Source: Herbidospora sakaeratensis (GTDB lineage Bacteria > Actinomycetota > Actinomycetes > Streptosporangiales > Streptosporangiaceae). From it: DNA of 64,000 nucleotides. The DNA lies in the NCBI RefSeq assembly GCF_001570525.1, contig NZ_BBXC01000009.1, positions 240,363 to 304,362 of the forward strand, written 5' to 3'. Below, piece after piece: positions 43,276 to 59,668 of the stretch. How positions within the stretch are numbered: the first letter of the stretch is position 1; every line of letters starts with the position of its first letter. The notes beneath the pieces are model-generated. The model saw only the letters and a list, made by a program, of their open reading frames with translations. It did not search any database and was not told the DNA's origin. The translations under genes were made by a program, and so were the position numbers.

Positions 43276-43893
43276 ATGGGTGTGCGGCCGGTCTCCGTCG
43301 AAAGGCTCGTCGCCGAGCTGGCCGGGCAGATCGCCGACCGGCCCGGCCGGCTGCGGGTGGCCGTCGACGGCGCCGACGCGGCAAGGCCGTGGGAACTGGC
43401 CGACCTGATCGCCGAGAAGCTGAAGGTGCATCGGCACGTGCTGCGGGTGTCGGCCCGGGACTTCCTCCGGGCCGCCTCGCTCCGCTACGAGTTCGGCAGG
43501 CAGGACCCCGACTCCTACTACGACGGCTGGCTCGACGTGAAGGGCCTGACCCGGGAGGTCCTCCAGCCGCTCGAACCCGGCGGCACCGGCCGGGTCGTGC
43601 CCTCGTTGTGGGACCCGGTCAGAGACCGCGCCACCCGCGCGCCCTACCAGGTGCTGCCCGAGAACGCGGTCGTCGTCCTCGACGGTCCGCTGCTCCTCGG
43701 GCAGGGTCTGCCCCTCGATTTCTCCGTTCACCTGAGCCTCTCGAAGAAGGCGCTGGAACGGCGTACCGGCGAACAGTGGACGCTGCCCGCCTTCGAACGC
43801 TACGCCGATGAGGTGAGGCCGCAGGATTGGGCGGATGTGGTGGTTCGGGTGGATGATTCCCGACACCCCGCACTGGTAGAAATTGATCCATGA
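43276..43893 (+). CDS. Uridine-kinase-like protein with a degenerate P-loop
   Basis: 205 residues. The overall order resembles the uridine/cytidine kinase family: an N-terminal strand LRVAVDGADAARPWELADLI at the place of the Walker A, FLRAASLRYEFGRQDPDSYYDGWLD (the substrate lid, seen in part), LDGPLLL and RRTGEQW. The P-loop GxxxxGKS is replaced by GADAARPW, so a nucleotide triphosphate is not held in the usual way. Non-catalytic role possible. GATGG start follows GGCCTG; overlap with the peroxiredoxin gene is 4 bases. Confidence 0.75.
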   Translation: MGVRPVSVERLVAELAGQIADRPGRLRVAVDGADAARPWELADLIAEKLKVHRHVLRVSARDFLRAASLRYEFGRQDPDSYYDGWLDVKGLTREVLQPLEPGGTGRVVPSLWDPVRDRATRAPYQVLPENAVVVLDGPLLLGQGLPLDFSVHLSLSKKALERRTGEQWTLPAFERYADEVRPQDWADVVVRVDDSRHPALVEIDP

Positions 43894-44348
43894 AAATCGG
43901 TGAGCTCGTCGCGGACTTCGCGCTTCCGGACGAGAACGGGGAGACCCGTCGCCTTAGCGAGTTCCTCGAAGAAGGGCCCGTGGTGCTCTTCTTCTACCCG
44001 GCGGCGATGACCTCCGGATGCACCGCCGAGACCTGCTACTTCCGTGACCTCGCCGCCGAATTCAAGGCGGTTGGAGCGGTCCGGGTCGGGATCAGCAAAG
44101 ACAAGGTGAAACGGCAGAAGTTGTTCGCCGAGACCAACTCGCTCGGCTACCCGCTGCTGTCCGACGAAGACGGCGTGGTGGCCAAGCAGATGGGGGTGCG
44201 CCGGTCGGTCGCCGTGGGGCCGTTCGTCACCCGCCGTGTCACCTTCGTCATCGACACCGACTTCACGGTGCTCGACGTCATCCACAACGAGGTGATGATG
44301 ACCGACCACGCCGACCGCGCGCTGAAGACCCTCAGGGATAGAGGCTGA
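43890..44348 (+). CDS. Thiol peroxidase / bacterioferritin comigratory-type peroxiredoxin
   Basis: 152 residues, PrxQ/BCP-type. Peroxidatic Cys and resolving Cys lie five residues apart in TSGCTAETCYFRD, the helix-2 arrangement of PrxQ. It reduces hydrogen peroxide and alkyl peroxides, using thioredoxin. ATG 43890 overlaps the upstream gene's stop, so the pair is coupled. The 3' end overlaps the convergent unknown gene by 17 bases. Confidence 0.93.
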   Translation: MKIGELVADFALPDENGETRRLSEFLEEGPVVLFFYPAAMTSGCTAETCYFRDLAAEFKAVGAVRVGISKDKVKRQKLFAETNSLGYPLLSDEDGVVAKQMGVRRSVAVGPFVTRRVTFVIDTDFTVLDVIHNEVMMTDHADRALKTLRDRG

Positions 44349-44775
44349 CGCGGTCGTCGACCTCGTGGTCGAACCCGCCCTCCAGGCCGACGCCGTGGGC
44401 GAGCGTGACGGTCCACTGCTCGTAGTACCACTCCAGGCTGTGCCCGCTGAACCGGAAGTTGGCCCGGTAGCGGGCCCGCTGGCCGGGGGCCAGGGTGAAC
44501 AGCTCGACCGGCCGCCGGTCGCGCGGGTGGGAGGCGAACACGGCGGCGCGCGACACCCGGCCGCCCGGCTCGACGCGCAGACCGGCCATGGTCGCGGGCA
44601 GGGTCAGTTCGCGGAGCGTCTCGGTGCGCGGTGAGAGCAGCACGTCGTGGAAGACGACCTCTCCCGTGCAGGCCGGCAGCGGCACCCGATCCGGCAGCGA
44701 CCCCCGCAGCGTGGCCGCGGCCGCACCGCGGCCGGCCTTGGACCAGCGAGTCAGCACCCGCTGCACCACGAGCAT
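44332..44775 (-). CDS. Hypothetical protein
   Basis: 147 residues, soluble, basic N-terminus followed by a beta-rich C-terminus with FTLAPGQRARYRANFRFSGHSLEWYYEQWTV, seen in part. No signal peptide and no recognised family. ATG 44775 is preceded only by weak Shine-Dalgarno-like bases. Divergent from the DUF998-type gene by 18 bases. Conserved elsewhere or not cannot be judged here. Confidence 0.6.
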   Translation of the reverse strand: MLVVQRVLTRWSKAGRGAAAATLRGSLPDRVPLPACTGEVVFHDVLLSPRTETLRELTLPATMAGLRVEPGGRVSRAAVFASHPRDRRPVELFTLAPGQRARYRANFRFSGHSLEWYYEQWTVTLAHGVGLEGGFDHEVDDRVSLYP

Positions 44776-44793
44776 GGTGGCATTTTAGAGAGC

Positions 44794-45408
44794 ATGCGCG
44801 TTCCCGCCCAGGCCGGTCTCGGCGCCATCGCCGTGGCCGCCGCCGCCATCCTCACCCTCGAGTTCTCCTCGGGCCTCGACCTGACCCGCCGGACGATCAG
44901 CGAACACCAGCTGGGGGAGCACGCCTGGTTGTTCGGGATCTCGGTGGCCCTGATCGCGCTGGGTTCGCTCGGCATCGGGGCGACCCTCGTCGCGCAGCGC
45001 CGCGCCCGCCCACCGGGCCTCGTCGCACTGGCCGGGTGGAGCCTCGGGCTGCTGGTCGTGGCCGCCTTCCCCAAGCACGACTGGTCGGTCGGGCCGTCGT
45101 TCTCCGGGTCGGTCCACCGGGTCGGCAGCGTGGTGGCCTTCGTCTGCCTGCCGGTCGCCGTGTTGCTGCTGGCCCGGCCGTGGCGCGACACGATGGCGCG
45201 GGTGGCGGCGGCGCTCGGGCTCGGGGCCGTGGTGTGGATCGCCGGGATCGTGCTGGTCGGCTACACCGCCGCCCGTGACGGGATCCCGTGGTGGCGGGCG
45301 ATGCCGGTCGGGCTCGGCGCGGTGGAACGCGGGCTGGTGTTCACCGAGATCGCGGCGCTGGCGGCGTTGGGGATTTGGGCCATTGCCCGACAGGGGCGTA
45401 GGGCATAA
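44794..45408 (+). CDS. DUF998-type membrane protein
   Basis: 204 residues, six predicted membrane helices. The pattern RTISEHQLGEHAWLFGISVALIALG and FPKHDWS with Ser/His residues in the loop, then VHRVGSVVAFVCLP, is that of DUF998 (FeS-like name aside, a small integral membrane family). ATG 44794 is preceded by TTTTAGAG, a weak ribosome site. Function unknown. Confidence 0.78.
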   Translation: MRVPAQAGLGAIAVAAAAILTLEFSSGLDLTRRTISEHQLGEHAWLFGISVALIALGSLGIGATLVAQRRARPPGLVALAGWSLGLLVVAAFPKHDWSVGPSFSGSVHRVGSVVAFVCLPVAVLLLARPWRDTMARVAAALGLGAVVWIAGIVLVGYTAARDGIPWWRAMPVGLGAVERGLVFTEIAALAALGIWAIARQGRRA

Positions 45409-45471: not shown

Positions 45472-45981
45472 TTGCGCGATTTCCTGGACGCCGCATTCGG
45501 CTTTCCGGCTGTCCTGTTCAGCTTCGCGCTGATTGTGGTGATCGGATACTGGCTGCTGGTGGGCTTCGGCGTGGTCGACCTCGACGGTCTTCCGGCGGCC
45601 GAGGTCTCCGGGTTCGTGACCGCCGGGTGGTTCGCCGCGCTGGCCGGATCCGTCCTGTCACCCGGGCTCGGCTGGGCCGTCCTGGCCGCCGCGCTCGTCG
45701 TGGGCCTCGGCGCCGCGTTGCTGGTCCGCCGCCTCACGCCCGCGCCCGAGAAGGTGCCCTCACGGCACGACTTCGTCGGGCAGATCTGCGTCATCAGAAC
45801 CCAGTCGGTCTCCACCGACTTCGGTCAGGCCGAGATCCGCGCCGCCGACGGCTCGGCCTCGGTCATCCAGGTGCGCCAGACCGGCGCCGACGTCTTCCGC
45901 GCGGGCGGGGCCGCGCTGATCTTCCAATATGACGCGGAAGGCGAGTTCTTCTGGGTCATGCCTTACGAAGGGGGCCTGTAG
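45472..45981 (+). CDS. NfeD/YuaF-like membrane protein, flotillin partner
   Basis: 169 residues from a TTG at 45472 behind GGGGGAT. Three membrane helices (about 11-33, 51-70, 75-90) followed by a cytosolic OB-fold-like domain of about 75 residues: GQICVIRTQSVSTDFGQAEIRA, in pieces, ending IFQYDAEGEFFWVMPYEG. This matches the architecture of YuaF/NfeD1b proteins encoded before flotillins. The gene is 3 bases from the flotillin start, so the two are co-expressed and likely interact. Confidence 0.82.
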   Translation: MRDFLDAAFGFPAVLFSFALIVVIGYWLLVGFGVVDLDGLPAAEVSGFVTAGWFAALAGSVLSPGLGWAVLAAALVVGLGAALLVRRLTPAPEKVPSRHDFVGQICVIRTQSVSTDFGQAEIRAADGSASVIQVRQTGADVFRAGGAALIFQYDAEGEFFWVMPYEGGL

Positions 45982-45984
45982 TTC

Positions 45985-47994
45985 ATGGACGTCATCTCGG
46001 CGGGAGCCGGCATATTCATCGCGGTCGTGCTGATCGTCGTCATCGCGCTGGTGATCGTGGTCAGCCGGCTGTTCCGCAAGGTCGAGCAGGGCAAGGCCCT
46101 GATCGTGTCGAAGGTGCGCCGGGTCGACGTCACCTTCACCGGCGCCGTGGTCTTACCGGTGCTGCACAAGGCCGAGTTCATGGACATCTCGGTGAAGACG
46201 ATCGAGATCGAGCGCTCGGGCCACGAGGGCCTGATCTGCCGTGACAACATCCGCGCCGACATCAAGATCACCTTCTTCGTGCGGGTCAACAAGACCGCCG
46301 AGGACGTCGTGAAGGTCGCCCAGGCGATCGGCACCGCCCGCGCCAGCGACGAGTCGACCCTCCAGGCCCTGTTCAACGCCAAGTTCTCCGAGGCGCTCAA
46401 GACCGTCGGCAAGCAGCTCGACTTCGTCGACCTCTACACCCAGCGCGACGAGTTCCGCGACCAGATCATCCGCGTCATCGGCACCGACCTCAACGGCTAC
46501 TCGCTGGAGGACGCGGCCATCGACTACCTGGAGCAGACCCCGCTGTCCAAGCTCGACCCGGCCAACATCCTCGACGCCCAGGGCATCCGCAAGATCACCG
46601 AGCTGACGGCGATCGAGCACGTGCGGACCAACGAGTTCCAGCGCAACGAGGAGAAGGAGATCACCCGGCAGAACGTCGACGCCCGGGAGGCCATCCTCGA
46701 ACTGGAGCGCCGCCAGGCCGACGCCGAGATCAAGCAGAAGCGCGAGGTCGAGACCATGCGGGCCCGCGAGGAGGCCGAGATCTCCCGGGTCCGCGCCGAG
46801 GAGCGCCTCAAGGCCGAGGCCGCGTCCATCAGGACCGACGAGCAGATCGGCGTCCAGAGCGAGAACAAGGCCCGCGAGGTGGCCGTCGCCGAGAAGAACC
46901 GCGAGCGCGTGATCGCCATCGAGAGCGAGCGCATCGAGAAGGACCGGCTGCTGGAGGTCATCGCCCGCGAGCGGGAGACCGAGTTGTCGCGCATCGCCAA
47001 GGAGAAGGAGCTCGAGGTCGAGAAGCGCTCGATCGCCGAGGTCATGCGCGAGCGCATCGCGGTCGAGAAGACGGTGGCCGAGCAGGAGGAGCAGATCAAG
47101 CGCCTGCGGGTCATCGAGGAGGCCGAGCGCACCCGCCAGTCGGTCATCATCGCCGCCGAGGCCGAGGCGCAGGAGAACCTGGTCAAGGACATCAAGGCCG
47201 CCGAGGCCGCCGAGGCCGCGTCCAAGTTCAAGGCGCGCGAGGCGCTGGTGCTGGCCGAGTCGCGCCAGCAGGCCGCCGAGCTCGACGCCCGCGCCAAGAT
47301 CCGGCTCGCCGAGGGCGTGCAGGCCGAGGCCGCCGCGACCGGGCTGGCCGAGGTGCAGGTCAAGGAGCGCGCCGCCGCCGCGATCGAGAAGGTCGGCAAG
47401 GCCGAGGCGATCGTCGAGCGCGAGAAGGCCCTGGCGTCCGCCGAGGGCACCCGCGAGCGGCTGAAGGCCGAGGCCGACGGCGAGCAGGCCAAGGCCGTGG
47501 CCGCCGCGATGATGGTCGGGGAGAAGCTGAAGGCCGAGGCCGAGGGTCTCACCGAGAAGGCCGCCGCGCTGGCCGCGATGTCCGACGCGAGCCGCGTCCA
47601 CGAGGAGTACCGCCTGCGGCTGGAGGCCGAGAAGGAGATCCGCCTGGCCGGGGTCGAGGTGCACCGCAGGGTCGCCGAGGCGCAGGCCGAGGTGCTGTCG
47701 GCCGGCCTGTCGAAGGCCAACATCGACATCGTCGGCGGCGACAGCGTCTTCTTCGACAAGCTCGTCGGCGCGGTGACCATGGGCAAGAGCATCGACGGCT
47801 TCGTCGACAACTCCGAGGTGGCCCGCACCCTCGCCGAGCCCTACCTGAACGGCGACGCCAGCCTCAGCGCCGACGTCGCCAAGATCGTGTCCGGGGTCGA
47901 CTCGGGCGCCGTGCGCGACATGACCGTGTCGGCGTTCCTCGCCACCCTGATGAAGAACGGGGCCGCCCCGGCGATCACCCCGGTCGAGAAGTGA
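45985..47994 (+). CDS. Flotillin-like SPFH/band-7 protein
   Basis: 669 residues. N-terminal membrane helix (about 8-28), SPFH domain about 35-215 (with EQGKALIVSKVRRVDVTFTGAVVLP, quoted in part as GKALIVSKVRRV), then long coiled coil 215-560 rich in EAEAxAE/ERE heptads, and a conserved tail with IVGGDSVFFDKLVGAVTMGKSIDGFV. Flotillins assemble membrane microdomains that collect partner proteins. Its GTGA stop/start overlap with the giant ATPase gene makes that protein the likely client. Confidence 0.93.
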   Translation: MDVISAGAGIFIAVVLIVVIALVIVVSRLFRKVEQGKALIVSKVRRVDVTFTGAVVLPVLHKAEFMDISVKTIEIERSGHEGLICRDNIRADIKITFFVRVNKTAEDVVKVAQAIGTARASDESTLQALFNAKFSEALKTVGKQLDFVDLYTQRDEFRDQIIRVIGTDLNGYSLEDAAIDYLEQTPLSKLDPANILDAQGIRKITELTAIEHVRTNEFQRNEEKEITRQNVDAREAILELERRQADAEIKQKREVETMRAREEAEISRVRAEERLKAEAASIRTDEQIGVQSENKAREVAVAEKNRERVIAIESERIEKDRLLEVIARERETELSRIAKEKELEVEKRSIAEVMRERIAVEKTVAEQEEQIKRLRVIEEAERTRQSVIIAAEAEAQENLVKDIKAAEAAEAASKFKAREALVLAESRQQAAELDARAKIRLAEGVQAEAAATGLAEVQVKERAAAAIEKVGKAEAIVEREKALASAEGTRERLKAEADGEQAKAVAAAMMVGEKLKAEAEGLTEKAAALAAMSDASRVHEEYRLRLEAEKEIRLAGVEVHRRVAEAQAEVLSAGLSKANIDIVGGDSVFFDKLVGAVTMGKSIDGFVDNSEVARTLAEPYLNGDASLSADVAKIVSGVDSGAVRDMTVSAFLATLMKNGAAPAITPVEK

Positions 47995-50900
47995 CGGCAC
48001 TCGACGCCGGCACCTACGAGATCCTCCGCGCCCGGCTGGCCGAACAGGCCAAGGAGCTGGCCGGCCGGGCCGAGGAGCTCAACACCCGGCGCCTCGCGGT
48101 GTTCGGCGGCTCGGAGATGCGGCTGGTGGGGACCGAGCGCATCCGTACCGAGAACAACTGCGTGCCCCGGGACGTGGTCTCCGCCGGCGACACCATGATC
48201 TTCGGCTACAACGTGTTCATCGGCCTGCGGCCGCAGACCAGCGTCTCCGACGTCTTCTCCTTCCACCACTTCTCGCGCGACGGCGACGCGTTCACCTTCT
48301 CGGGCTCCGGGAGCGTGTTCGGCGACCCGGCCTTCGAGAAGGACTTCGGCGAGCTCTACCGCTACTACAAGGACACCCGGCTGCTGCAGCTGCGGAAGAT
48401 CGAGGGCAAGCTCCTGGCGATCTTCCAGACCGGGCCGCAGGACGTCCGGGTGCTGCGGTGGACGATGACCGCCGACGGCGCGCTGACCTACCTCGACTCG
48501 CGGGGCGAGCGCGACCACGTGCTGCCGCCCTCCCACGACTTCGAGTGGATCGAGACGACCCGCGACGACCACGTGCTCGGACGGCACCCGCACATCTCCA
48601 TCGGCGGCGAGCTGTTCGTCGAGACCGTCGGCGGCGACCTCACCATCAAGGTCGAGAACAACACCGAGTCGGGCGAGGGCGTCTACTCCGAGCCGGTCAC
48701 CGAGCGGCTGCAGAGCCTCGCCGACGCCGACGTGTTCCACGCGCGGGTCGGGCCGCTGATCCTGCTGAAGATCCGGCCCTACAAGGAGACCGACTGGCGT
48801 CACCTGGTCTTCAACACCCGGACCAAGAGCGTGACCAGGCTCGACGGGATCGGCCAGGCCTGCCAGCGGCTCCCGGAAGACCAGGGCGTCATCTTCCCCG
48901 GCGGCTACTACCTGACGACCGGCGTGGCCAAGACGTTCGAGACCGACGTGGCCGCGCTGGAGTTCGAGCGGGTGATCCGGAGCGAGGAGGACGTGCTCTA
49001 CGTCTTCCACGCGCGGGAGGAGGGGCGTTACCTCCTGCTTCCGTACAACGTGATCCGCAAGGAGGTCGCCAACCCGCTGCCCTGCCACGGCTACTCGTTG
49101 TTCGACGACGGCACGCTGGTGGTGTTCCGGGCGACCTCCGACGAGCCGTCGCGCGTCCACCCCATGCAGGTGTGGGACACCCCGTTCGCGGTCGAGCCGG
49201 CCGCCCCGGCCGGCACCGGCCCGCTGGAGCGCATCGGCAACGGCGAGCTGGTCAGAGGTGTCTCCGACTGCCTGTCGGTGGCCCGCATGGTCGACGAGAT
49301 GGCCCCCGCGCAGGCCGTCTTCGAGGCGCTGATCGCCGCCTGCGACCGCATCTCCGACGCCTACCACTGGCTCGGCGAACACGCCCTCGCCGAGCCGCTG
49401 GCGGCCCTGCGGGGCACCGCCGAGCAGGTGCTCGACGAGTTCGAGAACGTCCAGCGTCTCACCGAGGACGCCGCCAAGGCGGTGGCCGAGGCGCGCGAGC
49501 GCCTCGCCGCGATCCGCTCGACCGGCGTGACCCGCCTGGCCGAACTGCGCCGCGCCCAGGGCCACCTGGTGACCCTGCGCGAACGCCGGTACGCCGACCT
49601 CCCGGCCCTCGACGCCCTCGCCTCGGCCGTCGAGCAGCAGGTGACCGAGACCGCCGCCCAGGTGGTCGCCGACCTGCAACGCGACGACGCGTTCGCCGAC
49701 TTCCACGTCACGGTCGCCGCCCTCGCGGAGGAGGCCGAGGCGATCACGACCGTGGCCCACGCGGCCCCGGTGGCGGAGCGGCTGGCCGCCCAGTCGGACG
49801 GCCTGGAGGCGCTGATCGAGGTGGTCGGCACGCTGGAGGTCGAGGCGACCGCCCGCACCGTCATCCTGGAGAAGGTCGGCGCGGTCCTCGCCGAGATCAA
49901 CCGCGTGCGCGCCACCCTCGACGCACGACGGCGCGAACTGCTCGCCGCCGAGGGCCGGGCCGAGTTCGCCGCCGAGTTCGGCCTCCTCGGCCAGGCCGTG
50001 ACGGCCGGGCTGACCGGCGCCGACTCGCCCGAGAAGTGCGACGAGCGCCTCGGCCGGCTGCTGCTCCAGATCGAGGGCCTGGAGTCCCGCTTCGGCGAGT
50101 TCGACGACTTCCTCGGCCAGCTCGAACGCAAACGCGAGGAGGTCTACGAGGCGTTCTCGGCCCGCAAGCAGACCCTCCTCGACGACCGGGCCCGGCGCGC
50201 CGACCGGCTCGCCGACTCGGCCGACCGCATCCTCGGCACGGTCCGCCGCCGCTCCTCCACCCTGGCGACCCTCGACGAGGTGAACGCCTACTTCGCCGCC
50301 GACCCCATGGTCGCCAAGCTGCGCGCGGTCTCGGCCGACCTGCGGGACCTCGGCGACCCGGTCCGCGCCGACGAACTCGACGGCCGGGTGCGCGCCGCCC
50401 GCCAGGAGGCCGGCCGCGCCCTGAAGGACCGCACCGACCTGTTCGACGGCGACACCGTGAAGCTCGGCCGCCACCGCTTCGCCGTCAACACCCAGCCCCT
50501 CGACCTGACCCTGGTGCCCCACGACGGCGCGTTGTCGTACGCCGTCACCGGCACCGACTACCGCGCCCCCGTGACGGGCTTCACCGACACCCGGCACTTC
50601 TGGGACCAGCTGCTCGTCTCGGAGACGACGGAGGTCTACCGGGCCGAATACCTGGCGGCGTCGTTGTTCCCGGTCGAAGGCGACGTGGCCGAGGCGGTCC
50701 GCCGGGCCGCCGAGTCGCGCTACGACGAGGGCTACGAGCGGGGTGTGCACGACCACGACACCGTGCGCATCCTCGACGTCGTCACCCGCCTGCACGCCTC
50801 GGCCGGCCTGCTGCGTCACCTGCCCTCGGCCCGCGCGACCGCGCAGTTCTTCTGGGCGCACGGAAACCCGTCGCCGGCCTGGGAGGTCAGGGCCCAGTCC

Positions 50901-52655
50901 CTCACCCGGGCCCGGGAGTTGTTCGGCGGCGGTCCGGAGGCCCTCGACGCACTGGCGGCCGAACTGGCGTCGGCGATCGAGGCCCATGGCTGCCTCGAAG
51001 GCCCCGCCTCCCTGGCCGCCGACTACCTGGTCGAGGAGCTGGCCTCCGCACCCGCGGGCTTCGTCACCTCGACGGCGGCCCGCTCGTTCCTGGACGCCTT
51101 CACCACGGCCCTCGGCCCCGAACGTTTCACCGCCTTCACCGCCGAACTGGCGACCCTCGACCTGCCCGCCCGCATCCAGCTCGCCCGGGCCTGGCTGGCC
51201 GCCTTCGGCAAGGGCGACGTCTCACCCGAGGTCGTGGCGTTGTTGTTGTGCGACCTGCCCCGCTACGACTCCGCCGCGACGCTCGACGGGGTCGTCGAGG
51301 GTCTCCTGGGCGCCCACCCGCGCATCCAGGGCCGCTCCCTGCCGCTGCGCCTCGACGAGTTCCTCGCCAGGACGCGGATCTTCCGGTCGGAGCGGGTGCC
51401 GGCGTACCGGGACTACCAGCGCAGACGCGCCGAACTGGTGGCCGGCGAGAAGAAGCGCCTGCGCCTGGACGAATACCGGCCCAAGGTCATGGACTCCTTC
51501 GTCCGCAACGGGTTGATCGACCAGGTCTACCTGCCGCTGATCGGCGACAACCTGGCCAAGCAGCTCGACCACGGGATGGGATTGCTGCTGCTCATCTCCC
51601 CGCCCGGCTATGGGAAGACGACCCTGATGGAGTACGTCGCCAGCCGCCTCGGCCTGGTGTTCGTCAAGGTCAACGGCCCCGCCCTCGGACACGAGGTGAC
51701 CTCGGTCGACCCCGCCGACGCGCCCGACGCGACCTCCCGGTCGGAGGTCGAGAAGATCTCGTTCGCGCTGGAGATGGGCAGCAACGTGCTGCTCTACCTG
51801 GACGACATCCAGCACACCTCGCCCGAACTGCTGCAGAAGTTCATCTCCCTGTGCGACGCGCAGCGGCGGATGGAAGGCGTGTGGAACGGGACGGCGCGCA
51901 CCTACGACCTGCGCGGGAAACGCTTCGCGGTCTGCATGGCCGGCAACCCCTACACCGAGTCGGGCCAGGTGTTCCGGGTGCCCGACATGCTGGCCAACCG
52001 GGCCGACGTGTGGAACCTCGGTGAGGTGCTGAGCGGGAAGGACGACCTGTTCGCGCTGAGCTACATCGAGAACGCGCTCACCGCCAACTCCGTGCTGGCT
52101 CCCGTCTCCGACCACGGAGAGGTCGAGAAGCTGGTGCGGCTGGCCCGCGGGGAGGGCAGCGCCGACCAGCTCGCGCACCCCTACAGCACGGTCGAGCTCG
52201 ACCAGATCCTCAGCGTGTTGCGGAAGATGCTGCGGCTGCAGGAGGTGGTGCTGGCCAACAACCGGGCCTACATCGCGTCCGCCGCCCAATCCGACGCCAG
52301 CCGGACCGAACCTCCGTTCCTGCTGCAGGGGTCGTACCGGAACATGAACAAGCTCGCGCAGCGGGTGGTGCCGGTGCTGACCGACGCCGAACTGGAAGCC
52401 ATCATCGACGACCACTACCTGGGCGAGGCGCAGACCCTCACCTCCGGCGCGGAGGCGAACCTGCTGAAGCTGGCGGAGTTGCGCGGGATGCTGACCGACC
52501 CGCAGAAGGTGCGGTGGGAAGAGGTCAAGGCGGCCTACCGGCGAGCCCGGGCGATGGGCGGCGAAGACGACGACCCGACCACCCGAACGGTCTCCGCCAT
52601 CACCCACCTGGCCGACCGCCTCGGCGGCGCGATCACCTCCCTGAAGGACCGATGA
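47991..52655 (+). CDS. Giant AAA-type ATPase of the DUF3686 / 'DNA repair ATPase' family
   Basis: 1554 residues from GTG 47991. The N-terminal 400 residues form the DUF3686-like region (FGGSEMRLVGTERIRTENNCVPRDVV; GYNVFIGLRP), beta-rich and possibly propeller-like. A central helical/coiled-coil region covers about 430-800. The AAA core comes late: Walker A SPPGYGKTT with Lys1209, Walker B LLYLDDIQH (Asp1271, Asp1272), a sensor-like CMAGNPYTESG and a C-terminal helical lid. Usually annotated as DNA-repair ATPase, but the link with flotillin and an NfeD-like protein suggests work at the membrane. Real substrate unknown. Confidence 0.88.
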   Translation: MTALDAGTYEILRARLAEQAKELAGRAEELNTRRLAVFGGSEMRLVGTERIRTENNCVPRDVVSAGDTMIFGYNVFIGLRPQTSVSDVFSFHHFSRDGDAFTFSGSGSVFGDPAFEKDFGELYRYYKDTRLLQLRKIEGKLLAIFQTGPQDVRVLRWTMTADGALTYLDSRGERDHVLPPSHDFEWIETTRDDHVLGRHPHISIGGELFVETVGGDLTIKVENNTESGEGVYSEPVTERLQSLADADVFHARVGPLILLKIRPYKETDWRHLVFNTRTKSVTRLDGIGQACQRLPEDQGVIFPGGYYLTTGVAKTFETDVAALEFERVIRSEEDVLYVFHAREEGRYLLLPYNVIRKEVANPLPCHGYSLFDDGTLVVFRATSDEPSRVHPMQVWDTPFAVEPAAPAGTGPLERIGNGELVRGVSDCLSVARMVDEMAPAQAVFEALIAACDRISDAYHWLGEHALAEPLAALRGTAEQVLDEFENVQRLTEDAAKAVAEARERLAAIRSTGVTRLAELRRAQGHLVTLRERRYADLPALDALASAVEQQVTETAAQVVADLQRDDAFADFHVTVAALAEEAEAITTVAHAAPVAERLAAQSDGLEALIEVVGTLEVEATARTVILEKVGAVLAEINRVRATLDARRRELLAAEGRAEFAAEFGLLGQAVTAGLTGADSPEKCDERLGRLLLQIEGLESRFGEFDDFLGQLERKREEVYEAFSARKQTLLDDRARRADRLADSADRILGTVRRRSSTLATLDEVNAYFAADPMVAKLRAVSADLRDLGDPVRADELDGRVRAARQEAGRALKDRTDLFDGDTVKLGRHRFAVNTQPLDLTLVPHDGALSYAVTGTDYRAPVTGFTDTRHFWDQLLVSETTEVYRAEYLAASLFPVEGDVAEAVRRAAESRYDEGYERGVHDHDTVRILDVVTRLHASAGLLRHLPSARATAQFFWAHGNPSPAWEVRAQSLTRARELFGGGPEALDALAAELASAIEAHGCLEGPASLAADYLVEELASAPAGFVTSTAARSFLDAFTTALGPERFTAFTAELATLDLPARIQLARAWLAAFGKGDVSPEVVALLLCDLPRYDSAATLDGVVEGLLGAHPRIQGRSLPLRLDEFLARTRIFRSERVPAYRDYQRRRAELVAGEKKRLRLDEYRPKVMDSFVRNGLIDQVYLPLIGDNLAKQLDHGMGLLLLISPPGYGKTTLMEYVASRLGLVFVKVNGPALGHEVTSVDPADAPDATSRSEVEKISFALEMGSNVLLYLDDIQHTSPELLQKFISLCDAQRRMEGVWNGTARTYDLRGKRFAVCMAGNPYTESGQVFRVPDMLANRADVWNLGEVLSGKDDLFALSYIENALTANSVLAPVSDHGEVEKLVRLARGEGSADQLAHPYSTVELDQILSVLRKMLRLQEVVLANNRAYIASAAQSDASRTEPPFLLQGSYRNMNKLAQRVVPVLTDAELEAIIDDHYLGEAQTLTSGAEANLLKLAELRGMLTDPQKVRWEEVKAAYRRARAMGGEDDDPTTRTVSAITHLADRLGGAITSLKDR

Positions 52656-53311
52656 CCCCGCGCTCGGCCGAAGAGATCCGCGGCTACCTCGTCGCCCAGC
52701 TCAACGACGCGCTGCGCCGACCCGGCCTGTACGGCAACGAGATCGCCCTCCACGTCTTGTTCGACCACTACGCCTACGTGGAAGGCCGGGAGGACGTGTG
52801 GAAAGCGGAGATCGAAGCGATGCGCGAGCGGGGGGCCTTCGCGCCGACCGGCGTGCAGGGAGCGATCAGGTACGTCTTCGGCATCCCTGACGGAGAGCCC
52901 GCGGATGAGCACGCGGTGGCCTCGGTCTACGCGGAGTTCGCGAGATCCCAGGGGTGGTTGCGGACGGATCGGTCGCTGACCGCCGACGAGTACGCGTCGA
53001 TGCGCGACGACCTGGCGGTCGTGTGCGACGGCGACCGGACGTTCACCGAGGTGCGGGACAGGTTCGGCGTGCCTTCGGTGTTCATCGGCGGAAGCAATTC
53101 CCGTTTCGGGAAGACCCTCGGCTATTGCTCCGAAGACGTTGCCGACCCCATGGTCTTCTTCCACTTCTGGAACGGACGCGGCCCCGCAGGCGAATGGGCC
53201 ATGTATGAGGAACCGGCCCTGTTGGCGGCCCGCTGCGGCACCGGCAGGTTCGGCGACACCTTCACCTTCACCCCGATCGGCGCAAGCCGGACGAACCTGA
53301 AACTCTCCTGA
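52652..53311 (+). CDS. Unknown protein coupled to the flotillin-ATPase operon
   Basis: 219 residues; the ATG overlaps the giant ATPase stop (ATGA), so it is the fourth gene of that operon. Soluble, no signal peptide or membrane helix. N-terminal helical part (RSAEEIRGYLVAQLNDALRRPGLYGNEIALHVLFDH, in part) then a mixed region with GGSNSRFGKTLGY and a C-terminal beta segment. No family is recognised. It may be the system's effector, adaptor or immunity-like subunit; no evidence separates these. Confidence 0.75.
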   Translation: MTPRSAEEIRGYLVAQLNDALRRPGLYGNEIALHVLFDHYAYVEGREDVWKAEIEAMRERGAFAPTGVQGAIRYVFGIPDGEPADEHAVASVYAEFARSQGWLRTDRSLTADEYASMRDDLAVVCDGDRTFTEVRDRFGVPSVFIGGSNSRFGKTLGYCSEDVADPMVFFHFWNGRGPAGEWAMYEEPALLAARCGTGRFGDTFTFTPIGASRTNLKLS

Positions 53312-53330: not shown

Positions 53331-56300
53331 CTACTTCTTTCCTTTCGGCGGACGACGCTTGCCCGCCTTTCCTCCGCCGAACAGGAAAGCTTTGATGCGC
53401 TCCTTGATGCCCTTCTGTTCTCCGCTCAGATTGCTCGGCGGTTCTTTGGACAACCAGGACAAGTACTGAAGGATGATCGCCTTCTGCGCGTTCGCTTCAT
53501 GAGGTGAGGAGAAGACGGAGGCCAACTCCATCGCCATCTTCGACGTCAGCGGGTTCTTCTTGCCGTGGGCGCGCAGGCTGATCTCCAGGGCCTCTCGAAG
53601 CAGCAAGCGGGCATCAGCCGTCTCTTCCAGAGCATTGAGGGTGGAGGCGAGGTTGACAATCGCGTTGAGGGTGTCGGGGTGTTCGTCGCCGAGGATGCGT
53701 TTGCGGGCGGTGAGGACGTGTTCTTGGATGGTGCGGGCTTCGCCGAATTCGCCCAATGCGCGGAGGGTGGCGGCGAGTTGGCTGTTTGCGCTGATGGTGT
53801 GGGGGTGTTCGTCGCCGAGGATGCGTTTGCGGGCGGTGAGGACCTGTTCTTCGATGGTGCGGGCTTCGCGGAATTCGCCCAATGCGCGGAGGGTGGCGGC
53901 GAGGTGGGCGTTCGCGTTGAGGGTGTCGGGGTGTTCGTCGCCGAGGATGCGCTTGCAGGCGGTGAGGACCTGTTCTTCGATGGTGCGGGCTTCGCGGAAT
54001 TCGCCCAATGCGCGGAGGGTGGCGGCGAGGTGGCCGTTTGCGTTGATAGTTAAGGGGTGTTGGTCGCCGAGGATGCGCTGACTTGCGGCGAGGACGTGTT
54101 CTTGCATGGTGCGGGCTTCGCGGAACTCGCCCAATGCGCGGAGGGCGGAGGCGAGGTTGGCGTTCGCGTTGAGGGTGTCGGGGTGTTCGTCGCCGAGGAT
54201 GCGTTTGCGGGTGGTGAGGACGTCTTCTTCCATGGTGCGGGCTTCGTGCAACTCGCCCAATGCGCGGAGGGTGATGGCGAGATCGGCCTTGGCGATGAGG
54301 GTGTGGTGGTGTTCCTCGCCGAGGATGCGTTTGCGGGCGGTGAGGACGTGTTCTTGGATGGTGCGGGCTTCGCCGAATTCGCCCAATGCGAGGAGCGTGG
54401 CGGCAAGGTTGGCGTTCGCGTTGAGGGTGTCGGGGTGTTCGTCGCCGAGGAGTCGGCAGCGTGTCTCCACAACACGTTCTTCCAGAGCGCGGGTCTTTCG
54501 GTATAGCCCGGCCGCACGTATTAGCGTCCCCTGATAGGCCACGGCAGTGACGGTTTCCAGGTCCTCTTCTCCGAGTATCGCAGTGAAGGCGTCGACAAGT
54601 TCGTTCTGCACTTCGGTGGCCTGTGCCCAGTGGCCTTGCAGATAGAGCGCCTCGACGAAATCGCGGCCGGCTCGCAGGGTGTCCACATCATGCGCCCCGA
54701 GCTGCTCAATCCTGGCTCGATAGACTTCTTCTTGCGCTTGCCGCGCCCCGTGAACGTCGCCTCGGGCCAGCAGGATCAGACCTTGCGTGTTACGGCAGCG
54801 AAGATAGTCGGGAAGCCGCCTGGCCGAGGTCAGAGCATCCTCGACGACCGATGCCGCACGCTCCAGTCGCCCGCGAGCGAGGAGATAGCGGGCGATCCGA
54901 TCCAGCAGGTCACTTGTTTTAGTGATATCGGCTTCGAACCGCTGAGCGTGCCCGGCACTGGCGAGCGCGTGGGCGAGCATCGTCTCGCAGGCAGGCCAGG
55001 AAGCAGGGATGCCGACCTCGCTGGGGAACATGGTGTTCATCGCGTCGAGGGCGATTTCCGCCCAGCGTGGTTGGTCGGCACCGAGTTCGGTTCGGGTGAC
55101 GGCTTGCACCATCCGATGTATAGACATCAGGCCGTCGCCGGTCTTGGCCAGGGAGTATTCGCCGAGAGCCTTCGTCGCCGCGAGTCGCTTGAACGGATCC
55201 TCCAGTACCTCCGTCAACTCGGCAGGCATGCCCCCTACTGGGACGAGTTGGTCGAGCGGGATCGCTTCTGCCCCGAGGAAGGCGGCAAGGCGGAAGAGAG
55301 CTACGGCGGCCGGTGAGCGATCTGCCAGGCGGTCGAAGGACACCCGCCACGTCGAAGCGATCGTCTCTTGGTGATTGCCCGCCGCGAAGAGGGCCGGTGA
55401 CTCCTTGCGGAGGTGGTCGAGGTATTCGGCAGCCGACATCCCGTCGGCGATGACACTCGCCGCCTGAGCCAAGGCCAGCGGAAGACACCCCAGAGCCTCC
55501 GCCAGCTCCGCCGCGGTGTCCGGGTCGGACACCCGGCCCCACTGCCTCAGATACTCCACCGCTGCGGGAACGGTCACCACGTCGAGGTGTCGCGCCTGCG
55601 CATGAGGCCACTCCGGCCTTCGGGAAGTTATGAGCACATGGCCGGTCAACTTGTCCGGAAGGAGTGGAAGCAGTTCCTTCGGGTCCTCGGCGTTGTCGAA
55701 GATCAATAACCAGTTCTTCCGCCCCCGCAGCGATTGGCGCAGGGCCGCGATGGCCTGGTCGTCGGTGTCGAACGGCAGGCCCAGTTCCTTCGCCAGCTCG
55801 ACGTAGTCGCCCCGCAGCGTGGCCGGGTCTTCGGCGCGGATCCACCAGACCAGGTCATAAGACCCGCCATGCCGGAACGCGTATTCGATGGCCACCTGGG
55901 TCTTCCCCAGCCCGCCCAACCCGGTGATCGCCTGGATGGCCGACGCCCTCAGGTCCCGATGCAGATCCGCGAGGAGTTCGTCGCGCCCGGTGAAACGCGG
56001 GTCGGAGCGATGCCCCCGGAGTTCCCACACCTCCTGCTCCGCACCGGGAAAACGCACCGGCTTCGCCGACTTGTTGGGAAAGCCGGCCCGTGCGACCCGT
56101 TCCACCTGACTTTCCACGCCGCCGAGCAGCCGTCGCCGGGCCTCGTTCTCGTCGACGTCGCAGAGGTCGATCGGCTGCAGCGCGGCGACGGACCCCGCCA
56201 CATCACCGTCGCGCAGCCGGATGGGTATCAGGGCCCGTTCCTTGCCCGCCAGTCCCTGGTGCTGAGCCGCCGTGCGCACGAGCGCTTCCGCGTCCTGCTC

Positions 56301-56507
56301 GGAGGACAGGAGGTGGAGGGTGTGGCGGCTGGTGGCCAGCGCCTTGTCGATCTCTTCTAGGCGGTTGTGGCCCGGCCGGATGTCCCACGCGGTCAGGATC
56401 ACCCCGTATCCCGCCTTCTCCAGTTCGCACGCGATCCATTCCGCCCAGGCCACGTCGTCGTCGGCGTGGTGGATGAAGAAGTCTCGGGTGTACTCCGGGT
56501 CAGGCAA
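53331..56507 (-). CDS. TIR-NB-ARC-TPR (NLR-like, FxSxx-TPR-type) protein
   Basis: 1058 residues from a TTG at 56507 (GGGAG five bases upstream; the start lies 8 bases inside the end of the TIR gene). Residues about 8-130: TIR-like domain (DFFIHHADDDVAWAEWIACELE). Residues about 165-440: NB-ARC with P-loop GLGGLGKTQ (Lys202), NWLLIFDNAED, HVLITSRRPEW and GCLPLALAQ. Residues about 560-1000: helical repeats, ending in seven 42-residue TPR/kinesin-light-chain-type units with ILGDEHPDTLNA. The TIR catalytic Glu is not found at the expected place. A lysine-rich tail ends the protein. The frame runs open upstream to 58724, but that is antisense to other genes. Confidence 0.88.
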   Translation of the reverse strand: MPDPEYTRDFFIHHADDDVAWAEWIACELEKAGYGVILTAWDIRPGHNRLEEIDKALATSRHTLHLLSSEQDAEALVRTAAQHQGLAGKERALIPIRLRDGDVAGSVAALQPIDLCDVDENEARRRLLGGVESQVERVARAGFPNKSAKPVRFPGAEQEVWELRGHRSDPRFTGRDELLADLHRDLRASAIQAITGLGGLGKTQVAIEYAFRHGGSYDLVWWIRAEDPATLRGDYVELAKELGLPFDTDDQAIAALRQSLRGRKNWLLIFDNAEDPKELLPLLPDKLTGHVLITSRRPEWPHAQARHLDVVTVPAAVEYLRQWGRVSDPDTAAELAEALGCLPLALAQAASVIADGMSAAEYLDHLRKESPALFAAGNHQETIASTWRVSFDRLADRSPAAVALFRLAAFLGAEAIPLDQLVPVGGMPAELTEVLEDPFKRLAATKALGEYSLAKTGDGLMSIHRMVQAVTRTELGADQPRWAEIALDAMNTMFPSEVGIPASWPACETMLAHALASAGHAQRFEADITKTSDLLDRIARYLLARGRLERAASVVEDALTSARRLPDYLRCRNTQGLILLARGDVHGARQAQEEVYRARIEQLGAHDVDTLRAGRDFVEALYLQGHWAQATEVQNELVDAFTAILGEEDLETVTAVAYQGTLIRAAGLYRKTRALEERVVETRCRLLGDEHPDTLNANANLAATLLALGEFGEARTIQEHVLTARKRILGEEHHHTLIAKADLAITLRALGELHEARTMEEDVLTTRKRILGDEHPDTLNANANLASALRALGEFREARTMQEHVLAASQRILGDQHPLTINANGHLAATLRALGEFREARTIEEQVLTACKRILGDEHPDTLNANAHLAATLRALGEFREARTIEEQVLTARKRILGDEHPHTISANSQLAATLRALGEFGEARTIQEHVLTARKRILGDEHPDTLNAIVNLASTLNALEETADARLLLREALEISLRAHGKKNPLTSKMAMELASVFSSPHEANAQKAIILQYLSWLSKEPPSNLSGEQKGIKERIKAFLFGGGKAGKRRPPKGKK
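53571..54452 (-). repeat. Seven tandem 126-bp coding repeats in the NLR-like gene
   Basis: Units of exactly 126 bp (42 codons) start at 54452, 54326, 54200, 54074, 53948, 53822 and 53696 on the minus strand. Middle units differ at only a few bases; the seventh has drifted. They are in the TPR/KLC-like part of the gene, so the array can shrink or grow by whole units without a frameshift. Confidence 0.9.
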
Positions 56508-56952
56508 GGGGGCTCCCGGGGAATCTCGGATCACGTCGTTCTCGGGGCACGGAATCGGCCACGCCCGCGAGCAGCCGGCGGCGGGCCTCGTCTTCGTCCA
56601 CGCCCGCCACGTCGATGTAGACCACCGGACCGAGCAGCGGCCCCGGGTCGCATTCGGCCACCCTGACCGGGATGAACGAGCGCGGCCGGCCGAGCAGCGT
56701 CTGGCGGTAGGCCGCCGTCCATTCGGCGCGGGTGAAGAGGGAGGCCAGGTAGTGGGGGGACAACACGCCCAGGGTCCGGCGACAGGTCGACAGGGCGTCG
56801 TCCATGGCCGCCATGAAGTTGTCTCCGGGCAGGAAGTTCCACGCCTGGATGACGGTCGTGTGGCCGGCCTTCTCCAGGGTTTCGGCGACCCAGGTCGCCC
56901 AAGCCTCGTCCTTGTGGTTGTACGTGATGAAGAAATCCCGCTGCTCCACCAT
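56500..56952 (-). CDS. Stand-alone TIR-domain protein
   Basis: 150 residues: DFFITYNHKDEAWATWVAETLEKAGHTTVIQAWNF, in part, then SPHYLASLFTRAEWTAAYRQ with Glu77 as the probable NADase catalytic residue (the AEW motif of TIR_2), and RSFIPVRVAECDPGPLLGPVVYIDV. Bacterial TIRs of this type cleave NAD or make cyclic-ADP-ribose isomers, often when triggered by a defence sensor. ATG 56952 follows GGAGGA by 8 bases. It is upstream of and overlaps the NLR-like gene by 8 bases, so the sensor-plus-effector reading is natural but not proven. Confidence 0.87.
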   Translation of the reverse strand: MVEQRDFFITYNHKDEAWATWVAETLEKAGHTTVIQAWNFLPGDNFMAAMDDALSTCRRTLGVLSPHYLASLFTRAEWTAAYRQTLLGRPRSFIPVRVAECDPGPLLGPVVYIDVAGVDEDEARRRLLAGVADSVPRERRDPRFPGSPLA

Positions 56953-57047
56953 CGGACCGATCCTCCACTGACGATGAGATGATCCCTGGGCAACATACCG
57001 TGACGTACCACGCGGTTCAGGCACGTTGACGGGGGCAGCCGACGTCC

Positions 57048-58697
57048 ATGCGCTTTCACGCACTGGCATGTGACTACGACGGCACCCTCGCCGCCGACGG
57101 CCGCGTCGACGACGGCGTCGTCGAGGCGCTCGACCGGCTGGCCCGCTCGGGCCGGCGGCTGATCCTGGCGACCGGACGTCACCTCGACGACCTGCTCGAC
57201 GTCTTCCCCCGCCTCGACCTGTTCGACCGCGTCGTCGCCGAGAACGGCGCGCTGCTCTACCGGCCGGAGGAGCGGGAACGGGTGCTGCTCGCCGAGCCGC
57301 CGCCGACCGCGTTCGTCGAGCGGCTGCGTGCGGCCGGGGTCGAGCCGCTGCACGTCGGCGAGGGTGTCGTCGCCACGTGGCAGCCGCACGAGGGCACCGT
57401 GCTCGACGTCATCCGGGACCTCGGGCTGGAGTTGCAGATCGTCTTCAACAAGGGCGCCGTCATGGTGCTGCCGCCCGGCGTCAACAAGGCGACCGGGCTC
57501 GCCGTCGCGCTCGCGGAGCTCGGGCTGTCGGCGCACAGCGTCGCCGGGGTGGGGGACGCCGAGAACGACCACGCCTTCCTCGCCGTCTGCGAGTGCGCGG
57601 TCGCCGTCGACGGCGCGCTCCCCGCGCTGAAGGAGAGGTGCGATCTGGTCGTCGGCGACGTGCCCGAACTCGTCCGGCTGATGGTGGACGAGGACCTCGC
57701 GCACGTCCCGCTCGACCGGCACGACATCCTGCTCGGCGACGACGTCACGGTCAGGGCCCACGGCGAGCGCATCCTGATCGCCGGGCCCTCGCACAGCGGG
57801 AAGTCGACCGTCGCGGCGGCGCTGGTCGAGCGCATCCATGAGGCGGGCTACCAGATCTGCCTCGTCGACCCCGAGGGCGACTACGCCGAAGGGCTCGGCG
57901 ACGCCGTCGTCCTCGGCGACCCGCGGCGTGCCCCTACGCACGACGAGGTGCTGCAGATCGTCGGTGACGCCTCCAGGAGCGTCGTGGTCAACCTGCTCGG
58001 CGTGCCCATCGACGACCGGCCCGGTTACTTCGAGGAGCTGGTCATGCGGGTCGGGGCCGTGTGGGGGCGGGCCGGGCGGCCGCACTGGCTGGTGATCGAC
58101 GAGGCGCACCACCTGCTGCCCGACGGCTTCGACCCGCAGTCGACGGCCGCGCTGGGGGCTCTGCTGGCCATCACCGTGCATCCCGATTCGCTCAGCGCGC
58201 CGGTGCTGGGGGAGTTCACCGCCGTCATCGCCGTGGGGGCCGAGCCCGGGGGCGTCCTGGACGCCTTCAGCCGGGCCGAGCGTCCCGGCGTCCCGGACGA
58301 ACTGGAGACCGGTGAACTGCTGCTCTGGCGGCCGGGCGAGGATCCCGTCCAGGTGCGGCTGACCCCGTCGCGGAACGAACGCCGCCGCCACATCCGGAAG
58401 TACGCCGCCGGCACACTGGGCGATGACTCCAGCTTCTACTTCCGCGGGCCCGGCGACCGGCTCGATCTCAAGGCCGACAACCTCGACCTGTTCCTCCGGC
58501 TGGGCGAGGGCGTCGACGAGGACACCTGGCAGTTCCACCGCCGGCAGGGCGACTACTCGCGCTGGATGGCCGAGTGCGTCAAGGACGAGGAACTCGCCGC
58601 CGCCGTCGCCGAGGTCGAGCGGTCGGACGACGGCGTGGACGCCGGCCGGACGCGCATCAGAGAACTGGTCGAGGAGCGCTACACGGCCCCCGAATGA
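57048..58697 (+). CDS. HAD phosphatase (Cof type) fused to HerA/DUF87-like ATPase
   Basis: 549 residues. Residues about 1-215 are a Cof-type HAD: Asp9-Tyr-Asp11-Gly-Thr motif I, motif II ILATGRH, motif III Lys in PGVNKATGL, motif IV GVGDAENDHAF. Residues about 235-480 form a P-loop ATPase: Walker A GPSHSGKST (Lys252), and LVIDEAHHLLP (Asp351-Glu352), like the DUF87/HerA class. C-terminal tail to 549. The first part would remove a phosphate; the second would couple ATP hydrolysis to moving DNA or a protein. Divergent from the TIR gene, about 95 bp apart, so may belong to that locus. Confidence 0.88.
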   Translation: MRFHALACDYDGTLAADGRVDDGVVEALDRLARSGRRLILATGRHLDDLLDVFPRLDLFDRVVAENGALLYRPEERERVLLAEPPPTAFVERLRAAGVEPLHVGEGVVATWQPHEGTVLDVIRDLGLELQIVFNKGAVMVLPPGVNKATGLAVALAELGLSAHSVAGVGDAENDHAFLAVCECAVAVDGALPALKERCDLVVGDVPELVRLMVDEDLAHVPLDRHDILLGDDVTVRAHGERILIAGPSHSGKSTVAAALVERIHEAGYQICLVDPEGDYAEGLGDAVVLGDPRRAPTHDEVLQIVGDASRSVVVNLLGVPIDDRPGYFEELVMRVGAVWGRAGRPHWLVIDEAHHLLPDGFDPQSTAALGALLAITVHPDSLSAPVLGEFTAVIAVGAEPGGVLDAFSRAERPGVPDELETGELLLWRPGEDPVQVRLTPSRNERRRHIRKYAAGTLGDDSSFYFRGPGDRLDLKADNLDLFLRLGEGVDEDTWQFHRRQGDYSRWMAECVKDEELAAAVAEVERSDDGVDAGRTRIRELVEERYTAPE

Positions 58698-58717
58698 CCC
58701 CGGGTCATGATGATCAC

Positions 58718-59668
58718 ATGGCATTGACGACGAGTTTCACGCAGTTGGTCGGGGTGCGGCAGCCGATCGTGTCCGCGCCGATGGCCTTCTCGGCCGGTGG
58801 CGAGCTGGCGGCGGCCGTCTCACGCGGGGGCGGGTTCGGGTTGGTGGGCGGCGGGTTCGGCGCGCGCGACTGGCTGGAGCGGGAGCTGCCGATCGTCGCC
58901 CACAGCACCCGCGAGCCGTGGGGCGTCGGCTTCGTCTGCTGGGCCGCCGAGGTCGCCGGGGTCGAGTACGCCCTGGAGTACAACCCTGCCGCGGTCCTGC
59001 TGTCGTTCGGCGACCCCACCCCGTTCCTGCAGCCGATCAGGCGGGCCGGGGCGCTGCTGATGATCCAGGTCACCGACCTGGCCGAGGCCCGCCAGGCCCT
59101 CGACGCCGGGGCCGACGTCATCGTCGTCCAGGGCACCGAGAGCGGCGGTCACGGCGCGCGGCGGGGCCGGTCGACGTTCCCCTTCGTGCCGGCGGTGGCC
59201 GACCTGGCGGGCGACACGCCGGTGCTGGCCGCCGGGGGCATCGCCGACGGGCGCGGGGTGGCCGCCGCGCTGGTGCTCGGCGCGTCCGGGGCGCTGCTGG
59301 GCACCCGCTTCCAGGCCACCGCCGAGGCGATCGTCGACCCGGCGATCACCCGGGCGATCGTGGAGAGCCACGGCGGCCAGACGGCGCGCAGCAGCGTGCT
59401 CGACATCGTCAAGGGCATCGACTGGCCCGAGAAGTACGACGGCCGGAGCCTCGCGCACCCGTACATCGACCGATGGCACGGCCGAGAGGACGAGCTCACC
59501 GGAGAGACGAGGCAGACGGCCCGGGACGAGATGGCCCGGGGCGCCGCGCCTCCGGCGGTCTGGGCGGGCGAGGCGGTCGACCTGATCGGCGACCTGCCCT
59601 CGGCCGAGGACCTCGTCGCCGCCCTGGCCGCGCAGGCCGAACAGGCGCTGGACCGGGTCGGGCGCTAA
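58718..59668 (+). CDS. Nitronate monooxygenase family (2-nitropropane dioxygenase-like)
   Basis: 316 residues, FMN-dependent TIM barrel. Motifs PIVSAPMAFSAGG, VVQGTESGGHGARRG and AAGGIADGRGVAAALVLGASGALLGTRF, in pieces, are the FMN-phosphate and active-site segments. The His in GGHGA is the likely catalytic base. The family oxidises nitronates or propionate-3-nitronate. ATG 58718 gives a 316-residue protein of normal length and lies 21 bases after the HAD-ATPase stop, so co-transcription is possible. Confidence 0.9.
   Translation: MALTTSFTQLVGVRQPIVSAPMAFSAGGELAAAVSRGGGFGLVGGGFGARDWLERELPIVAHSTREPWGVGFVCWAAEVAGVEYALEYNPAAVLLSFGDPTPFLQPIRRAGALLMIQVTDLAEARQALDAGADVIVVQGTESGGHGARRGRSTFPFVPAVADLAGDTPVLAAGGIADGRGVAAALVLGASGALLGTRFQATAEAIVDPAITRAIVESHGGQTARSSVLDIVKGIDWPEKYDGRSLAHPYIDRWHGREDELTGETRQTARDEMARGAAPPAVWAGEAVDLIGDLPSAEDLVAALAAQAEQALDRVGR

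What the first reader, a model, noticed from the sequence alone, without database searches (positions are those of the whole stretch)
45472..53311. Four-gene flotillin-giant AAA ATPase operon with an uncharacterised last gene
A NfeD/YuaF-like membrane protein, a flotillin, a 1554-residue DUF3686-type ATPase and a 219-residue unknown are joined by gaps of 3 bases or 4-bp overlaps. The ATPase is known only by a 'DNA repair' label, while the context says it works at a membrane scaffold. It lies head-on against a TIR/NLR locus. A membrane-stress or phage-response machine is possible; this is inference. The unknown fourth gene has no recognised family and is the best candidate for something new.
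Basis: partly seen in the sequence, partly recalled or inferred. Interest (0 to 1): 0.75.

Follow-up and report, generated by a model that had tools for sequence, protein, structure and literature searches.

The report
Flotillin–NfeD–giant ATPase operon plus passenger
A soil actinomycete carries a three-gene membrane-maintenance operon of an already described kind (membrane scaffold, its partner and a giant motor ATPase), and the unknown fourth gene beside it looks like a fast-changing local neighbour, not a part of the machine.

Summary
The four genes are as described: NfeD/YqiJ-like protein, flotillin, 1554-aa DUF3686 AAA+ ATPase and a 219-aa orphan, with a 3-bp gap and two 4-bp overlaps. 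The host is Herbidospora-like.

The first three genes are one conserved unit. A flotillin lies within 3 kb upstream of the ATPase in 60 of 60 loci and in 77 of 80 named loci; the other three have 250 bp or less of upstream DNA. This kind is in print: Ravi et al. 2024 describe flotillin + YqiJ/YuaF + beta-propeller AAA+ operons, in full form with CesT/Tir-PspA. Two plasmid copies show PspA-linked forms. I found no support for the "DNA repair" label.

It is near the ATPase in 5 of 60 loci, all one genus, and intact in 3 of 7 genomes there, while all seven have the ATPase. The TIR/NLR neighbour is shared by 2 of 60 loci.

The parts
45472..45981 (+). NfeD-like (YqiJ/YuaF/DUF1449-type) membrane protein, 169 aa, TTG start
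   Evidence: relationship to the protein at the YqiJ position of pQBR103 (E 3e-13) and to Hymenobacter DUF1449 (profile probability 99%); no Pfam NfeD hit itself
45985..47994 (+). Flotillin/SPFH protein, 669 aa, N-terminal TM, band-7 domain, long coiled coil
   Evidence: Band_7 E 1e-11 on the first 222 aa; 44% identity over 580 aa to the annotated SPFH protein of pQBR103; TM and coiled coil read by eye
47991..52655 (+). DUF3686-DUF7902-AAA+ ATPase, 1554 aa; Walker A, Walker B and sensor-1 residues invariant in 25 aligned sequences
   Evidence: AAA+ fold nearest to MoxR-type NorQ/CbbQ; motif names assigned by eye
52652..53311 (+). 219-aa orphan protein, accessory neighbour in Herbidospora, not part of the conserved core
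   Evidence: confident model (pLDDT 91.6)
53331..56504 (-). Convergent TIR-NB-ARC-TPR gene (outside the operon; upper end approximate, because the listed 1797-aa ORF has about 740 residues before the TIR domain)

Best explanation
The first three genes are an 'abbreviated' flotillin/NfeD/AAA+ envelope-maintenance operon of the kind described by Ravi et al. 2024. Shown here: order and conservation of the three genes, an intact AAA+ core that looks MoxR-like in a model, and linkage of two distant copies to PspA genes. Inferred: the flotillin forms a membrane-attached oligomer that NfeD stabilises through its cytosolic domain; clients (misfolded or unassembled membrane proteins, or a PspA-type polymer) gather there; the DUF3686 ATPase docks on the scaffold by its N-terminal part and its AAA+ ring pulls on or remodels the clients with ATP, adding an energy-driven step to the ATP-independent holdase action shown for FloA-NfeD. 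The 219-aa gene is a passenger downstream of the ATPase in the Herbidospora lineage that is being lost; it may be co-transcribed but is not needed by the machine.
Against: No experiment on a DUF3686 ATPase was found: 'DUF3686' occurs in 0 papers of the library. Client, docking and direction of action are inference. The one PspA match of this genome is on another contig. The beta-propeller is taken from the paper, not modelled here. Two plasmid proteins at the flotillin position (Hymenobacter, Streptomyces NBC_00080) gave no Band_7 hit when scanned whole, and the listed genes of the Streptomyces globosus plasmid show a methyltransferase, not an NfeD gene, before the flotillin. NfeD was detected in only 59 of 80 named loci. 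The flotillin-ATPase distance correlation (r 0.765) has no control for species relatedness. The model of the ATPase C-terminal part is of middling confidence (pLDDT 76, pTM 0.50). The 4-bp overlap with the fourth gene is kept at the junction in four Herbidospora genomes, which leaves a local coupling possible.
Confidence: 0.62

Rival explanations
1. The fourth gene is a lineage-specific adaptor or regulator of the ATPase, translationally coupled to it through the ATGA overlap.
For: The ATGA junction is present in the window, L039, L040 and L041; confident fold and dN/dS of 0.46-0.55, below 1.
Against: Found beside 0 of 54 non-Herbidospora ATPase loci (one of them, L091, holds only about 0.6 kb downstream) and 0 of 77 named non-Herbidospora loci (four of these with under 1.5 kb downstream); reduced or missing in 4 of 7 Herbidospora genomes that keep the ATPase; in one genome it lies 1.3 kb off, behind a luciferase-like monooxygenase gene; no ATPase match in the ten regions around its relatives elsewhere.
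Confidence: 0.1
2. The operon is a phage-defence or phage-response system working with the neighbouring TIR/NLR gene.
For: Convergent TIR-NB-ARC-TPR gene 19 bp away in the window; patchy distribution, 56 of 120 family genomes and 8 of 246 phylum genomes.
Against: TIR/NB-ARC near the ATPase in only 2 of 60 loci, both Herbidospora, and 1 of 80 named loci, also Herbidospora; a third Herbidospora genome has a relative near the start of another contig, so adjacency there cannot be judged (L042). No PADLOC family for the operon proteins apart from P-loop matches at E 0.0026-0.012; two distant copies sit with PSP envelope-stress genes. Defence-gene enrichment around the loci was not measured.
Confidence: 0.08
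3. The ATPase is a DNA-repair enzyme, as Pfam and the plasmid records name it, and the flotillin link is secondary.
For: Pfam text and the product name 'DNA repair ATPase'; weak sequence matches to RuvB P-loop models and to an SMC model; knock-out of a Shewanella flotillin of the COG2268 family raised mutation rate and peroxide sensitivity (title and passages).
Against: The nearest folds are MoxR-type chaperones; RuvB is not among the 50 rows shown, which does not exclude it. The constant partners are two membrane proteins. The RuvB matches cover about 40-75 residues around the P-loop. The Shewanella authors explain the DNA damage by leaking iron.
Confidence: 0.07
4. The ATPase is a Vps4-like partner that disassembles a PspA/ESCRT-III-type polymer.
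For: PspA genes stand in line with the ATPase gene in pQBR103 and Hymenobacter; the review of PSP systems proposes ESCRT-like roles in general (passages).
Against: AAA+ core resembles MoxR/NorQ, then midasin and dynein; no Vps4 row among the 50 shown, which is not an exclusion; classic-AAA proteins (Rix7, VCP) do appear among the weak sequence matches; PspA is not linked in this genome.
Confidence: 0.13

Closest known systems
Flotillin + YqiJ/YuaF + beta-propeller AAA+ operons of Ravi et al. 2024 (PMC11237479)
   Same: Same three gene kinds; the paper names the abbreviated form and says it is more widely distributed (section 19)
   Different: Here without the CesT/Tir-PspA dyad, and with a genus-specific fourth gene; the AAA+ is placed here near MoxR, a term that does not occur in the paper's main text
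FloA-NfeD holdase of Staphylococcus aureus (PMC11222466)
   Same: Flotillin plus NfeD pair
   Different: Acts without ATP according to the passages seen; no DUF3686 ATPase is mentioned in them
NorQ/NorD and CbbQ/CbbO (MoxR AAA+ chaperones)
   Different: The solved chains are 231-267 residues and NorQ works with a VWA protein (abstract starts in the listing); here no VWA in the operon and about 1150 residues precede the AAA+ domain
FtsH-HflKC
   Same: AAA+ ATPase working with an SPFH scaffold (abstract)
   Different: No peptidase domain found in the DUF3686 protein

Membership tests
Abbreviated flotillin/YqiJ/AAA+ operon (Ravi et al. 2024) | SPFH/flotillin gene upstream of the ATPase | tested here: met
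Abbreviated flotillin/YqiJ/AAA+ operon (Ravi et al. 2024) | YqiJ/YuaF-type membrane protein gene | tested here: met
   Pfam NfeD itself not matched
Abbreviated flotillin/YqiJ/AAA+ operon (Ravi et al. 2024) | AAA+ domain on the third protein | tested here: met
Abbreviated flotillin/YqiJ/AAA+ operon (Ravi et al. 2024) | N-terminal beta-propeller and coiled coil | not tested
   DUF3686 present; propeller taken from the paper, no model made of that part; that the paper's ATPase is DUF3686 is inferred from the operon and architecture
Full CesT/Tir-PspA-flotillin-AAA+ operon | PspA gene in the operon | tested here: not met
   the single PspA_IM30 match of the genome lies on another contig, C27; CesT/Tir genes were not searched for
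MoxR AAA+ family | AAA+ fold closest to MoxR-type ATPases | tested here: met
MoxR AAA+ family | VWA-domain partner encoded alongside | tested here: not met
   no VWA in the four operon proteins
Vps4/classic AAA | closest fold Vps4-like | tested here: inconclusive
   no Vps4 row among the 50 shown
FtsH-type membrane protease | peptidase domain | tested here: not met
   no peptidase family in the Pfam scan
Known anti-phage system | match to a defence model | tested here: not met
   only IetA and mads P-loop matches at E 0.0026-0.012 for the ATPase; none for the other three
DNA repair enzyme | repair activity or phenotype | not testable with these tools
   label only

The most novel reading that the evidence does not exclude
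The DUF3686 ATPase is a MoxR-clade assembly chaperone stationed at a cytosolic flotillin/NfeD scaffold: a soluble, non-proteolytic counterpart of FtsH-HflKC that rebuilds or loads membrane complexes (possibly metal-containing ones, as NorQ does) under envelope stress, with the N-terminal DUF3686 domain taking the role of the missing VWA adaptor.
Probability: 0.25. Interest if true: 0.6.

Novelty: new member of a known kind. Interest (0 to 1): 0.33.

Why it matters
It takes a misleading 'DNA repair' reading off a large ATPase family, shows that its constant partners are two membrane proteins, and gives a testable structural guess (MoxR-type remodeller at a flotillin scaffold). It also shows that the orphan fourth gene, although tightly joined here, is most likely a local passenger; tight spacing in one genome is weak evidence of shared function.

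Tried and rejected

TIR/NLR partnership: rejected. The distance correlation of flotillin and ATPase (54 loci) was kept as weak, having no species control. Promoter/terminator scan: no promoter found, 2 terminators against 2.8 in shuffles. PDB profile searches with the flotillin and NfeD alignments: no match at E<=0.1 and E<=1. A Foldseek 'pdb' search was never accepted (four tries for the 219-aa model, one for the ATPase model); only VIA-align results are used. Literature: 'DUF3686' 0 papers, 'DUF7710' 0 papers. A search for MoxR, flotillin and AAA+ (two of three terms) found 134 papers, 12 listed; none of the 12 holds both MoxR and flotillin. The other 122 were not seen, so no claim is made that the link is unpublished.

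Limits of the counts. The 60 loci are the window, 9 loci from the other genomes, 4 Herbidospora loci taken because they carry the 219-aa gene, and 46 loci. Of the 56 ATPase-bearing genomes, 7 were not fetched (G007, G014, G045, G051, G055, G387, G410). In L029 the ATPase is split over two ORFs and in L133 its called ORF is 238 aa. Two of the 60 (L091, L126) end about 0.6 kb past the ATPase. The 60 unnamed and 80 named loci overlap in part. Five of the 80 have under 1.5 kb downstream. NfeD was found in 59 of 80 by tblastn; it is short and diverged, and some of the misses have too little upstream DNA, but others have over 7 kb.

Full report

What the proteins are. The third protein has DUF3686 (E 1.4e-205), DUF7902 (1.3e-23) and an AAA domain (AAA_5 1e-6, AAA 5.2e-6). 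All 25 sequences of the alignment match both AAA models, and the GYGKT, DD and GNPY residues, which I take for Walker A, Walker B and sensor 1, are invariant in it. The second protein is an SPFH protein: Band_7 E 1e-11 on its first 222 residues, though not when scanned whole, and 44% identity over 580 residues to a plasmid protein annotated as SPFH. The first is a diverged YqiJ/DUF1449-type protein, without a Pfam NfeD hit of its own. The fourth has no family over a cut-off in Pfam, NCBIfam, PADLOC or PHROGs.

The core is a conserved unit. I compared 60 ATPase loci: the window, 9 loci of the other genomes, 4 Herbidospora loci chosen because they carry the fourth gene, and 46 loci (7 of its 56 positive genomes were not fetched). 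A flotillin lies within 3 kb upstream on the same strand in 60 of 60 and a recognisable NfeD within 5 kb in 58. Among the 80 best named loci (79 actinomycetes by name and one Acidobacteriota MAG), flotillin is present in 77; the three misses have 10, 145 and 250 bp of upstream DNA. NfeD is detected in 59 of 80. The ATPase is in 7 of 7 genus genomes, 56 of 120 family genomes and 8 of 246 phylum genomes, own genome included each time, and in none of the 14 control genomes.

Distant copies. tblastn finds 12 plasmid-collection records, from Streptomyces, Nonomuraea, Deinococcus, Proteus, Pseudomonas, Hymenobacter, Halomonas, Photobacterium and Vibrio. I opened 6 of these 12. Each has a gene of flotillin size (1.9-2.2 kb) just before the ATPase; three of the six are annotated as SPFH or flotillin, the rest as hypothetical. 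Of three scanned whole, one matched Band_7 and two did not. On pQBR103 the order is YjfI, PspA, rhomboid, DUF2491, DUF350, DUF1190, glutathionylspermidine synthase, a 217-aa YqiJ-like protein, SPFH, ATPase. In Hymenobacter it is a Tir chaperone, PspA, DUF1449, a 722-aa protein at the flotillin position, ATPase. The other four show no gene annotated as PspA in the stretch seen, and on the S. globosus plasmid the listed gene before the flotillin is a methyltransferase.

What is in print. Ravi et al. 2024 (section 19 read whole; other passages) describe operons joining CesT/Tir-PspA with a band-7/flotillin protein, a novel AAA+ ATPase with coiled coil and beta-propeller, and a YqiJ/YuaF protein. 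They note abbreviated operons without the PspA dyad. The window's core is such an abbreviated operon; that their ATPase is the DUF3686 family is my inference from the architecture and the gene order. The term DUF3686 is in no paper of the library. FloA-NfeD of S. aureus stabilises unfolded proteins without ATP, with NfeD's soluble domain facing the cytoplasm (passages). Deleting a COG2268 flotillin in Shewanella altered iron metabolism and raised peroxide sensitivity and mutation (title and passages); its stated operon is with a DUF1449 gene, and no ATPase is mentioned in the passages seen.

The TIR/NLR neighbour. TIR and NB-ARC segments of the window gene match 2 of the 60 loci (window and L039) and 1 of the 80 (L140, H. 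galbida) at E<=1e-5. A third Herbidospora genome has a relative near the start of another contig (L042). The proximity is local to Herbidospora.

Mechanism. Shown: conserved three-gene unit, membrane partners, intact AAA+ motifs, MoxR-like fold in a model, linkage of two opened copies to PspA. Inferred: flotillin-NfeD scaffold collects clients, the ATPase docks and remodels them with ATP. Confidence about 0.6 for envelope or membrane-protein maintenance by ATP-driven remodelling, and about 0.85 that the fourth gene is not part of it.

Verdict. A real, well-read operon of a kind already described by comparative genomics; the highlighted unknown gene is most likely a passenger. Interest is moderate: no experiment on a DUF3686 protein was found here, and the MoxR-like assignment gives a concrete test.

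Noticed in passing
window 53331-58724 (-): The 1797-aa TIR/NLR ORF is over-long: the TIR domain starts near residue 749. A second TIR copy (42% identical over 152 aa, 56940-56512, another frame) lies just upstream within a 189-aa ORF (57069-56500), so there are probably two tandem genes, a small TIR protein and a TIR-NB-ARC-TPR protein that also matches NCBIfam FxSxx_TPR (E 4e-193).
   Followed up: partly
L030, L032, L034, L035, L036 (upstream of the NfeD/flotillin genes): In 5 of 8 loci of one same-class genus (L029-L036) a divergent gene of one family precedes the operon; the L030 member has GGDEF_2 and PucR-type HTH domains, a candidate regulator not seen next to the Herbidospora operons.
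   Followed up: no
L049 8196-9149: A relative of the 219-aa protein carries a C-terminal DUF7710 domain (E 8e-28).
   Followed up: partly
L043 1750-14294: A relative of the 219-aa gene sits between ORFs with Tc-like toxin domains; other relatives have different neighbours.
   Followed up: no
window 43890-45408 (+): AhpC/TSA-type and DUF998 genes precede the operon and are kept there in the six Herbidospora loci, not in the other genera shown.
   Followed up: no
G147 and G321 (L029/L030, L032/L033): Two genomes of one genus carry two copies of the flotillin-ATPase pair each.
   Followed up: no
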